Assembly: GCA_000155435.1 (NCBI GenBank)
Contig: DS990260.1
Location: 154,606 to 218,605, forward strand
Length of the DNA: 64,000 nucleotides
DNA from: Clostridiales bacterium 1_7_47FAA
Lineage (GTDB): Bacteria; Bacillota; Clostridia; Lachnospirales; Lachnospiraceae
Direction: 5' to 3'
Shown: piece after piece, positions 1,411-2,451 of the stretch
Position numbering within the stretch: the first letter of the stretch is position 1
Layout of the letters: each line of letters opens with the position of its first letter
Notes under the pieces: model-generated
What the model saw: only the letters and a program-made list of their open reading frames with translations
Databases searched by the model: none
Told to the model about the DNA's origin: nothing
Program-made: the position numbers and the translations under genes

Positions 1411-1632
1411 ATGCTAAAATACAAAATTGACATTCCTGCCGCGTTAAAAGAAAATGAATATACTACTTATCACATACGACAGGAGAAACTTATTGGCGAA
1501 GCACAAATGCAAAAAATCCGTAAAGGTGAAATTGCAAGCAAGGAAACGCTTAATAAACCATGTGAATTGCTCAACTGTCAACCAGGAGATTTGTTGGAGT
1601 ATATAGAGGAAGACCATTCAGCAAAAACATAA
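1411..1632 (+). CDS. Small XRE-type helix-turn-helix regulator
   Basis: The 73-residue protein consists of a single Cro/C1-type HTH domain. The run KLIGEAQMQKIRKGEIASKETL is helix 2-turn-helix 3, and the ending LLNCQPGDLLEY is typical of the small HTH_26/YozG-like regulators of Firmicutes. It probably dimerises and binds the inverted repeat at 1321-1371, repressing its own gene. The usual 'NINTIC' segment before LLNCQPGD reads LNKPC here, a small departure from the family. It sits next to a toxin-antitoxin locus but has its own promoter, so a functional link is not shown. Confidence 0.8.
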   Translation: MLKYKIDIPAALKENEYTTYHIRQEKLIGEAQMQKIRKGEIASKETLNKPCELLNCQPGDLLEYIEEDHSAKT

Positions 1633-1753
1633 TGAAATAAGCCCCGAGACGCAATTCGGGACAGCAGAATGACAATATAATATACTTACCAAGGGAACCG
1701 ATGGGGCGATATGTCCAGCCACCTACTTATACAAAAGAAAGGGGCTGGTGCTC

Positions 1754-1837
1754 ATGTATGTTACATATGGCGATTTATTCACCTTTGTAATTATGCTATG
1801 CGCAGTTATAACTCTTGTTTATCTGCATAAAAAATAG
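1754..1837 (+). CDS. Holin-like toxin peptide (type I toxin, Hol_Tox-like)
   Basis: This 27-residue ORF begins MYVTYGDLFTF, contains one hydrophobic membrane-spanning stretch (roughly residues 7-24) and ends in HKK. That pattern matches the 'putative holin-like toxin' peptides of Firmicutes, which insert in the membrane when overproduced. A GAAAGGGG ribosome binding site lies 10 nt before ATG. A convergent antisense RNA with its own strong promoter overlaps the 3' part of the transcript, which supports a type I toxin-antitoxin module like txpA/ratA. The family call rests on pattern and context, not a search. Confidence 0.75.
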   Translation: MYVTYGDLFTFVIMLCAVITLVYLHKK

Positions 1838-1921
1838 CGCCCCCACCTGGACAGTGTAGCGCTATTTAAGTAATTATACACCGAGGTGGCTAGGCTATAT
1901 CTAGTCATCGGTTCTCTTGTT
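1828..1921 (-). ncRNA. Predicted antisense antitoxin RNA
   Basis: A consensus promoter on the minus strand would start RNA near 1921. The RNA would end at the hairpin TAGCGC...GCGCTA (1835-1865) followed by TTTTTT on the minus strand, giving roughly 90 nt. It overlaps the end of the toxin ORF and its 3' untranslated region over its whole length, as antitoxin RNAs of the RatA type do. Confidence 0.65.
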
Positions 1922-1927
1922 AAGTAT

Positions 1928-1956
1928 ATTATATCGGTTCGCCAAACTATTGTCAA
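1928..1956 (-). promoter_or_regulatory. Strong promoter of the antisense RNA
   Basis: TTGACA, 17 bp, TATAAT on the minus strand: a perfect sigma-A consensus. There is no coding frame downstream of it, which argues for an RNA product. Confidence 0.75.
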
Positions 1957-2054: not shown

Positions 2055-2090
2055 AACCGCAACCTTTTGAGGGCTGCGGTTCTTGTTTTT
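2055..2090 (+). terminator. Rho-independent terminator of the toxin mRNA
   Basis: AACCGCAACC pairs with GGGCTGCGGTT over a TTTTGA loop, followed by CTTGTTTTTT. It would end the toxin transcript about 220 nt after its stop codon, beyond the antisense promoter, so the two RNAs overlap completely. Confidence 0.65.
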
Positions 2091-2451
2091 TAGTGGGCAG
2101 GTATAAGGTAAGTATATCCATATAGAAGGATTTCGGGATTTTGTCATGACTGCCAGCATTTTCTCCAGTTCATTAATCTTTATATCCCCAAAAATCTTGG
2201 CATATAGCAATTTTTGCCTGTCCTTTCGGAGCTGACCTGACATAATCCGAAGCATGGTCTGAACCATTGTCTTTTTCCAATCCGTGCAAACATAATAGCC
2301 TGCTGACAGATATGTCTGACGTGTATCTCTAAAAGTGTCACAAAACCTCTCCCATGAAAAATATATCCAACATCAGAGCCTGTTTACAAACTGGCATTTT
2401 ACAAAAAAGAGAACATCCACTACGATTGATTTTAAAATCTAAATCGAACTC
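2091..2451. other. Intergenic region, nothing firmly supported
   Basis: A minus-strand frame (2040-2267) has no ribosome binding site and no recognised family. I see no convincing terminator for the ABC transporter operon that ends at 2452. Confidence 0.35.

What the first reader, a model, noticed from the sequence alone, without database searches (positions are those of the whole stretch)
1754..1956. Compact type I toxin-antitoxin locus
A 27-residue holin-like peptide, a perfect-consensus antisense promoter (TTGACA-17-TATAAT) without any coding frame, an antisense hairpin terminator inside the end of the toxin ORF and a toxin terminator beyond the antisense promoter. All parts of a TxpA/RatA-like system are visible.
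Basis: partly seen in the sequence, partly recalled or inferred. Interest (0 to 1): 0.6.

Follow-up and report, generated by a model that had tools for sequence, protein, structure and literature searches.

The report
Antisense-controlled membrane-toxin gene with RNA switch
This is a tiny gene for a probable membrane toxin kept silent by an antisense RNA, of a known kind, but relatives in many bacteria show that the toxin messenger's two ends pair in a way that should open its ribosome site, and that the antisense RNA, itself a copy of the messenger's front end, probably undoes that pairing.

Summary
The locus is real: a 27-codon membrane-peptide ORF (1754-1837) converges with an antisense RNA of about 90 nt whose promoter is perfect (unique in the window; 0 in 100 shuffles) and whose terminator straddles the stop codon. 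Relatives occur in 125 of 397 genomes of the host's family.

In 46 aligned relatives two leader/3'UTR helices and a hairpin over the Shine-Dalgarno (SD) site covary. One leader helix and the SD hairpin share three nucleotides, so they exclude each other. A hold-out of 61 related loci agrees.

Model: the 3' UTR holds the leader away from the SD (on); the antisense RNA covers the 3' UTR and frees the leader to close the SD (off), perhaps with RNase III cleavage. This resembles Bacillus BsrG/SR4 more than TxpA/RatA. The window peptide fails Pfam Hol_Tox; 18 of 30 relatives match at E<=1. Transcripts, toxicity and the mRNA 3' end are untested. New variant of a known kind.

The parts
1658..1686 (+). 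candidate sense (toxin) promoter GGGACA-17-TATACT, 9 of 12; a TATAAT also lies at 1676-1681
   Evidence: weak, as in relatives (best sense match 8-9 of 12 in 45 of 58)
1675..1712 (+). left arm of the 38-nt inverted repeat (sense -10 region plus leader)
1692..1702 (+). leader arm of helix P1, pairs with 1907-1917 (window positions mapped by hand from alignment A3)
1715..1720 (+). anti-SD arm of hairpin P3, pairs with 1743-1748
1718..1724 (+). leader arm of helix P2, pairs with 1884-1890; shares 1718-1720 with P3
1739..1744 (+). Shine-Dalgarno AAGGGG; the SD side of P3 is 1743-1748
   Evidence: sequence
1754..1837 (+). toxin ORF, 27 aa MYVTYGDLFTFVIMLCAVITLVYLHKK; one membrane helix and a Lys tail judged from the sequence
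1831..1920 (-). antisense antitoxin RNA, about 90 nt (ends inferred); its 5' part repeats the mRNA leader
   Evidence: promoter and terminator; folding
1826..1867 (-). antisense terminator hairpin (1832-1867) and U-tract
1884..1890 (+). 3' UTR arm of P2
1880..1912 (+). sense-direction hairpin with poor U-tract, possible weak terminator
1907..1917 (+). 3' UTR arm of P1
1897..1934 (-). right arm of the inverted repeat (antisense -10 and leader copy)
1928..1956 (-). antisense promoter TTGACA-17-TATAAT, 12 of 12
2055..2092 (+). plausible toxin mRNA terminator beyond the antisense promoter

Best explanation
A chromosomal type I toxin-antitoxin locus with an RNA switch. The weakly promoted mRNA encodes a 27-aa membrane toxin. 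In the leader, a short arm (1715-1720) can close a hairpin over the SD (P3: off). If transcription reads through the stop-proximal hairpin, the 3' UTR pairs with the leader (P1, P2), takes nucleotides 1718-1720 away from P3 and opens the SD (on). The strongly promoted antisense RNA, whose 5' part is a near copy of the leader and which is fully complementary to 1831-1920, covers the 3' UTR. The leader is released, P3 forms and translation stops, with no antisense pairing at the ribosome site; RNase III probably destroys the duplex as well. Shown: anatomy, conservation, covariation of P1, P2 and P3. Predicted by folding: the on/off effect. Inferred: both transcripts and their ends, read-through, toxicity, RNase III.
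For: P1 95.8% of cells paired, covariation 0.438 against 0.209 shuffled; P2 85.5%, 0.500 against 0.216; P3 95.6%, 0.458 against 0.285; percentage paired, doubly changed cells and covariation score reached by 0 of 500 shuffles in each. RNAalifold finds P1 and P3 unprompted. Among 36 clusters, swapping arms between loci never reaches the cognate value in 2000 trials; cognate arms beat those of the 5 nearest relatives in 44 of 46 loci (P1), 30 (P2) and 28 (P3). Hold-out of 61 loci: 0 of 1000 swaps reach the cognate value for any helix. SD opening cost, full mRNA against 3' end occupied: medians 3.7 and 5.8 kcal/mol, lower in 36 of 46; hold-out 2.9 and 5.6, lower in 45 of 61, and lower than with a foreign 3' UTR in 45 of 61; second subfamily lower in 57 of 62, and lower than with a foreign 3' UTR in 45 of 62. 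Window: 3.8 against 9.4. Positive control bsrG: 5.4 against 7.7, and the SD hairpin of the best fold lengthens, as published (PMC6562991, passage).
Against: No transcript data; the mRNA 3' end is unknown. If most mRNA stops at the stop-proximal hairpin (sense tail mean 4.5 T of 8 against 5.6 on the antisense side), P1 and P2 form in few molecules. The window mRNA keeps P3 at probability 0.73 and P2 at 0.26 in the full-length fold, so its on state is partial. The effect is reversed in 4 of 46, 5 of 61 and 3 of 62 loci. The excess of G-U over A-C pairs, which would assign the pairing to the mRNA strand, is 63 to 9 in P1 but 12 to 9 without two columns. In the bsrG control the probability of the core SD pairs falls (0.95 to 0.6) although the opening cost rises, and the bsrG leader matches some unrelated family 3' flanks better (up to 31) than its own (26). 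A second antisense-less locus, L080, is not clearly closed: 6.3, 8.2 or 2.7 kcal/mol by the 3' end assumed.
Confidence: 0.6

Rival explanations
1. Same toxin and antisense RNA, but the antisense RNA acts only by forming an RNase III substrate with the mRNA 3' end (TxpA/RatA or BsrE/SR5 mode); the leader/3' UTR pairing merely stabilises the mRNA.
For: That is the described mode of RatA and SR5 (PMC6562991 and PMC7430163 passages); the antisense RNA is fully complementary to the mRNA over about 90 nt by position.
Against: P2 and P3 share nucleotides and both covary, and 3' occupancy closes the SD in most loci; stability alone would not need P2 to compete with P3.
Confidence: 0.24
2. The full-length end-paired mRNA is the inert form and 3' trimming activates it (hok or aapA logic).
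For: End pairing of toxin mRNAs is known for that role (PMC6733600 passages).
Against: Predicted SD opening is cheaper in the full-length mRNA than in 3'-shortened forms in 36 of 46 loci and 45 of 61 hold-out loci.
Confidence: 0.08
3. The inverted repeat is a DNA-level feature (duplicated promoters, a mobile-element end, or arms homogenised by gene conversion), not RNA pairing.
For: The repeat includes the -10 and the stretch up to the start point of both promoters, which the mRNA cannot pair; the G-U argument for RNA pairing rests on two columns.
Against: The stretch between P1 and P2 stays different between the arms yet conserved in each, unlike conversion; P1 and P2 covary; the bsrG leader also resembles the complement of its own 3' UTR without a promoter duplication.
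Confidence: 0.05
4. The peptide is not a toxin but a regulatory or holin-like membrane peptide under antisense control.
For: Toxicity has not been tested; 11 of 30 relatives match the competence inhibitor ComI at E<=1, 13 of 30 a phage 'holin' family.
Against: Relatives match Hol_Tox (18 of 30) and the type I toxin PepG1 (12 of 30) at E<=1; the locus plan is that of type I modules.
Confidence: 0.05

Closest known systems
BsrG/SR4 (Bacillus subtilis SPbeta)
   Same: Small membrane toxin; convergent antisense RNA to the mRNA 3' end; leader complementary to 3' UTR (a helix P1 is published; that it joins leader and 3' UTR is computed here); SD in a local hairpin that lengthens when the 3' end is occupied (published 4 to 8 bp, PMC6562991; same direction by folding).
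   Different: Toxin 27 aa against 38 aa; antisense about 90 nt against 180 nt; here the antisense RNA starts at the end of the paired 3' arm, so its 5' end copies the mRNA leader and the repeat runs into both -10 regions; a second leader/3' UTR helix competes with the SD hairpin, supported by covariation.
TxpA/RatA (B. subtilis skin element)
   Same: Convergent antisense RNA over the mRNA 3' end.
   Different: 59-aa toxin, 222-nt RatA, RNase III essential, no change at the SD (passages).
timP/TimR (enterobacteria)
   Same: Full-length mRNA is the active form, with mutually exclusive folds; the sRNA disrupts the active one (PMC11228461 passages).
   Different: A pseudoknot inside the 5' UTR; the sRNA binds the 5' UTR, not the 3' UTR.
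hok/Sok and aapA/IsoA
   Same: 5'-3' long-distance pairing in a toxin mRNA (PMC6733600 passages).
   Different: There the end-paired mRNA is inert; here it is predicted to be the active form.
Fst/par (Enterococcus)
   Same: Short convergent antisense RNA meeting the mRNA at a shared hairpin (recalled).
   Different: par has direct repeats that make the two leaders complementary (recalled); here the repeat is inverted and the leaders are alike.

Membership tests
Type I toxin-antitoxin system | Small hydrophobic peptide gene with an overlapping antisense RNA gene, co-conserved | tested here: met
   by sequence; antisense promoter at least 11 of 12 in 47 of 58 relatives
Type I toxin-antitoxin system | Peptide toxic unless the antisense RNA is present | not testable with these tools
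   needs expression
Hol_Tox (PF16935) | Profile match of the window peptide | tested here: not met
   no hit at E<=1; not listed in the own genome at E<=10; 18 of 30 relatives match at E<=1, best 5.5e-7
TxpA/RatA | Antisense RNA complementary to the mRNA 3' end | tested here: met
   by position and sequence; mRNA 3' end inferred
TxpA/RatA | Antisense binding leaves the SD region unchanged | tested here: inconclusive
   folding predicts a change; no probing
TxpA/RatA | RNase III essential | not testable with these tools
   experiment
BsrG/SR4 | Leader paired with 3' UTR | tested here: met
   (covariation)
BsrG/SR4 | 3' occupancy strengthens SD sequestration | tested here: inconclusive
   met in silico in 36 of 46, 45 of 61 and 57 of 62 loci and in the bsrG control; no experiment
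BsrG/SR4 | Toxin homologous to BsrG | tested here: inconclusive
   BsrG matches PF16935 at 2.5e-8, as do 18 of 30 relatives at E<=1, but not the window peptide
Fst/par | Direct repeats shared by the two RNAs | tested here: not met
   no direct repeat family in 1400-2200, one inverted pair; the feature itself is recalled
hok/aapA | Full-length mRNA inert through SD sequestration by end pairing | tested here: inconclusive
   opposite direction predicted by folding; no experiment

The most novel reading that the evidence does not exclude
A widespread class of type I modules in which the toxin mRNA's 3' UTR is a translation activator that works by capturing the anti-SD leader, only read-through transcripts can be translated, and the antitoxin is a decoy copy of the mRNA's own leader that competes for the 3' UTR. 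A second subfamily with a different leader sequence appears to run the same logic through a relay of alternating SD and anti-SD copies.
Probability: 0.45. Interest if true: 0.65.

Novelty: new variant of a known kind. Interest (0 to 1): 0.47.

Why it matters
In the reviews seen, the way an antitoxin RNA that binds the far end of an mRNA can shut its ribosome site is described for one system, bsrG/SR4. Here about a hundred natural variants (46 aligned and 61 hold-out loci), with compensatory changes in two competing helices, show which bases to change to test it, and suggest why the antisense RNA copies the leader. The family is common in the host's bacterial family (125 of 397 genomes) and also occurs on viral contigs (21 loci). 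Its ORFs are mostly 25-33 codons, so gene callers may miss them. If confirmed, such loci could serve as small genetic parts in these bacteria.

Tried and rejected
The upstream Cro/C1-type gene (1411-1632, HTH_26 at 5.5e-11) as a general third component: not supported. Among all 289 loci held, phmmer finds it only in the window's own loci and in L052 of the same genus. In L052 a truncated relative lies directly upstream of a broken toxin ORF with its antisense side in place; a C-terminal remnant also lies beside the own-genome paralogue. So the pair is linked in three loci of one genus, and not seen elsewhere; 100 of the 289 loci were fetched with only about 500 bases of flank. Rfam: no match up to E=1 in 1200-2600. 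Phage and plasmid records: no tblastn match of the window peptide, two weak ones for a relative in phages. A coding antisense RNA: rejected. G-U against A-C counts as proof of strand: weakened, they rest on two columns in P1. A rerun of the SD test with motif-based ends placed ends in only 30 of 58 and 62 of 90 loci (22 of 30 agree, 4 reversed, in the first set). In the second subfamily RNAalifold finds the end pairing and one leader hairpin in 52 of 90 loci kept by motif, but covariation is thin and the SD pairs with the ORF there. An alignment of 10 viral-contig loci with the window was made and not scored. The 12 loci dropped before alignment A3 had broken or different leaders or ends and were picked by eye (L070 L078 L080 L002 L149 L121 L161 L176 L074 L158 L134 L083), which favours the pairing counts. 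The hold-out was not filtered in that way (18 of 79 lost: 14 repeats of earlier loci, 4 at contig edges or without start), but it is the same subfamily, chosen by a peptide pattern, so it is not phylogenetically independent; 12 of its 61 loci pair poorly in P1 or P2.

Full report
Observation. The window holds, at 1754-1837, a 27-codon ORF with an SD nine bases upstream of its ATG. On the other strand a TTGACA-17-TATAAT promoter lies at 1956-1928. It is the only exact match in 64 kb and never appears in 100 shuffles. An antisense hairpin with U-tract (1826-1867, -17.3 kcal/mol, z -4.3) follows it, which gives an RNA of about 90 nt with no usable coding frame. The antisense U-tract is encoded by the toxin's last Lys codons. 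A plausible terminator for the toxin mRNA lies at about 2055-2092.

What was missed. The flanks of the ORF form an inverted repeat, 1675-1712 and 1897-1934, 38 nt, 84%. Both transcripts therefore start with nearly the same sequence, and the mRNA's leader is complementary to its 3' UTR. The mRNA to 1918 folds with z -4.8; cut at 1874, z is -1.4.

Relatives. The own genome has a second copy with 26 of 27 residues alike, whose DNA match ends just after the stop codon: its antisense half is gone. A profile of six peptides finds relatives in 9 of 17 genomes of the genus (E<=0.01) and 125 of 397 of the family (E<=0.001). In a draw from the whole class, which again included own-family genomes and the own genome, a wider profile at a stricter cut-off hits 8 of 196. 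Of 79 named contigs with the close subfamily kept by the tool (of 152 that qualified), 36 titles say Lachnospiraceae and others name genera such as Roseburia, Blautia and Anaerostipes. Twenty-one IMG/VR loci encode relatives. Of 30 diverse members 18 match Pfam Hol_Tox, 12 the type I toxin PepG1 and 11 ComI at E<=1; the window peptide matches none.

Conservation of the plan. From the 187 loci held at that point 151 distinct toxin sites were extracted. In the 147 with enough flank, the similarity of the upstream flank to the reverse complement of the downstream flank averages 29.3 against 19.5 between loci; it exceeds the between-locus mean in 131 and the best of 30 others in 59. In 58 sites of the window's subfamily, chosen by a peptide pattern, the antisense promoter matches 12 of 12 in 33 and at least 11 in 47. 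The sense promoter is weak: best match 8-9 of 12 in 45 of 58, against 8-9 in 47 of 58 for shuffled antisense flanks.

Covariation. Forty-six of the 58 were aligned (the 12 left out are named under Tried and rejected). RNAalifold, unprompted, pairs leader with 3' UTR (P1) and leader with SD (P3); 25 of its 38 pairs show double changes. A scan finds a further leader/3' UTR helix P2, 94.7% paired over seven pairs. P1: 95.8% of cells paired against 83.0% shuffled. P2 (nine pairs): 85.5% against 68.4%. P3: 95.6% against 87.3%; each 0 of 500. Other measures are less extreme: 'pairs with a change on both sides' is reached by 51 of 500 shuffles for P1, 133 for P2 and 2 for P3; 'further pair types' by 147 of 500 for P1 and none for P2 and P3. 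Whole-arm swaps among 36 clusters never reach the cognate value in 2000 trials; cognate arms pair better than those of the five nearest relatives in 44, 30 and 28 of 46 loci, equally in 1, 11 and 14, worse in 1, 5 and 4. In 61 hold-out loci the values are 90.2, 91.5 and 86.3% against 79.6, 79.3 and 79.3% swapped, 0 of 1000 each; 12 of the 61 pair poorly in P1 or P2.

Switch. P2 and P3 use the same leader nucleotides (1718-1720 in the window), so they cannot form together. Partition-function folding gives P2 a median probability of 0.72 and P3 0.03 in the full mRNA; P3 rises to 0.85 when the 3' part is missing or covered, and the cost of opening the SD rises from 3.7 to 5.8 kcal/mol (medians; lower in the full mRNA in 36 of 46, higher in 4). 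An mRNA ending at the stop-proximal hairpin is also predicted closed (6.1). Hold-out: 2.9 to 5.6, 45 of 61 lower and 5 higher; the cognate 3' UTR opens the SD more than foreign ones in 45 of 61 and less in 5. In the second subfamily the full mRNA is more open in 57 of 62 and less in 3, and more open than with a foreign 3' UTR in 45 and less in 9; its leaders carry alternating CCCTC and GGAGGG copies. For the window the costs are 3.8 and 9.4, although P3 still has probability 0.73 in its full mRNA. For the paralogue without antisense the cost is 9.2, which could explain how it is tolerated; a second antisense-less locus, L080, gives 6.3, 8.2 or 2.7 by the 3' end assumed and does not clearly agree.

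Positive control. PF16935 finds bsrG in phage SPBc2. Its leader too resembles the complement of its 3' UTR (score 26; 95% of shuffles at 25 or less; but up to 31 against family 3' flanks), and its best fold pairs the two ends. The same computation gives 5.4 and 7.7 kcal/mol, with the SD hairpin of the best fold growing when the 3' end is removed, while the probability of the four core SD pairs falls from about 0.95 to 0.6. Reviews report that SR4 binding to the bsrG 3' end lengthens the SD-sequestering helix from 4 to 8 bp, whereas RatA and SR5 do not act so (PMC6562991, PMC7430163, passages). The method thus recovers the direction of one published case; SR5, a published negative, was not computed.

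Reading. Best supported is a type I module that works like BsrG/SR4: end pairing keeps the SD open, and the antisense RNA, a leader copy, covers the 3' UTR and lets the leader shut the SD. Steps shown: parts, conservation, covariation. Steps predicted: on and off states. Steps inferred: transcripts, read-through past the stop-proximal hairpin, toxicity, RNase III. The main weakness is the unknown mRNA 3' end. 

Novelty. Nothing in the titles, abstracts and passages seen in searches (open-licence PMC full text) describes this family or an antitoxin RNA that copies the mRNA leader; a review of type I systems in Clostridia has no occurrence of 'inverted repeat' or 'long-distance' in its main text (PMC6563280, term search). 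PMC10903887, which mentions holin-like toxins, was seen only as a listing. Subscription literature was not searched. The kind is known; the compact leader-copy plan and the competing helices are a new variant.

Noticed in passing
L002 (own genome C105:257542-257742, minus): Second copy with intact toxin ORF whose antisense half and right repeat arm are missing; SD predicted closed (9.2 kcal/mol). A C-terminal remnant of the neighbouring HTH gene also remains.
   Followed up: partly
window 1411-1632; L052; L002: A Cro/C1-type HTH gene lies directly upstream of the toxin in three loci of one genus (whole, truncated, remnant) but in none of the other loci held.
   Followed up: partly
window 1675-1690 and 1919-1934: The inverted repeat runs through the -10 and up to the start point of both promoters, which RNA pairing cannot explain; seen in relatives too.
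   Followed up: no
L118, L133, L098, L031/L039: Several toxin copies close together: three in L118, two each in L133, L098 and L031/L039.
   Followed up: no
L049, L050, L051, L054, L087, L113, L171 and others: Second subfamily leader with alternating CCCTC and GGAGGG copies ahead of the SD, an attenuator-like relay.
   Followed up: partly
L189-L209: Relatives on IMG/VR contigs, several within about 2-5 kb of a contig end, as might be expected of prophage-edge genes.
   Followed up: no
own genome C106:1079023 and 1076520, C106:139577, C107:1985237, C107:1618405: Five sites over the Hol_Tox cut-off elsewhere in the same genome.
   Followed up: no
L149, L137, L080: L149 and L137 keep the antisense side but have a replaced toxin leader; L080 has lost the antisense side after the stop codon.
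   Followed up: no
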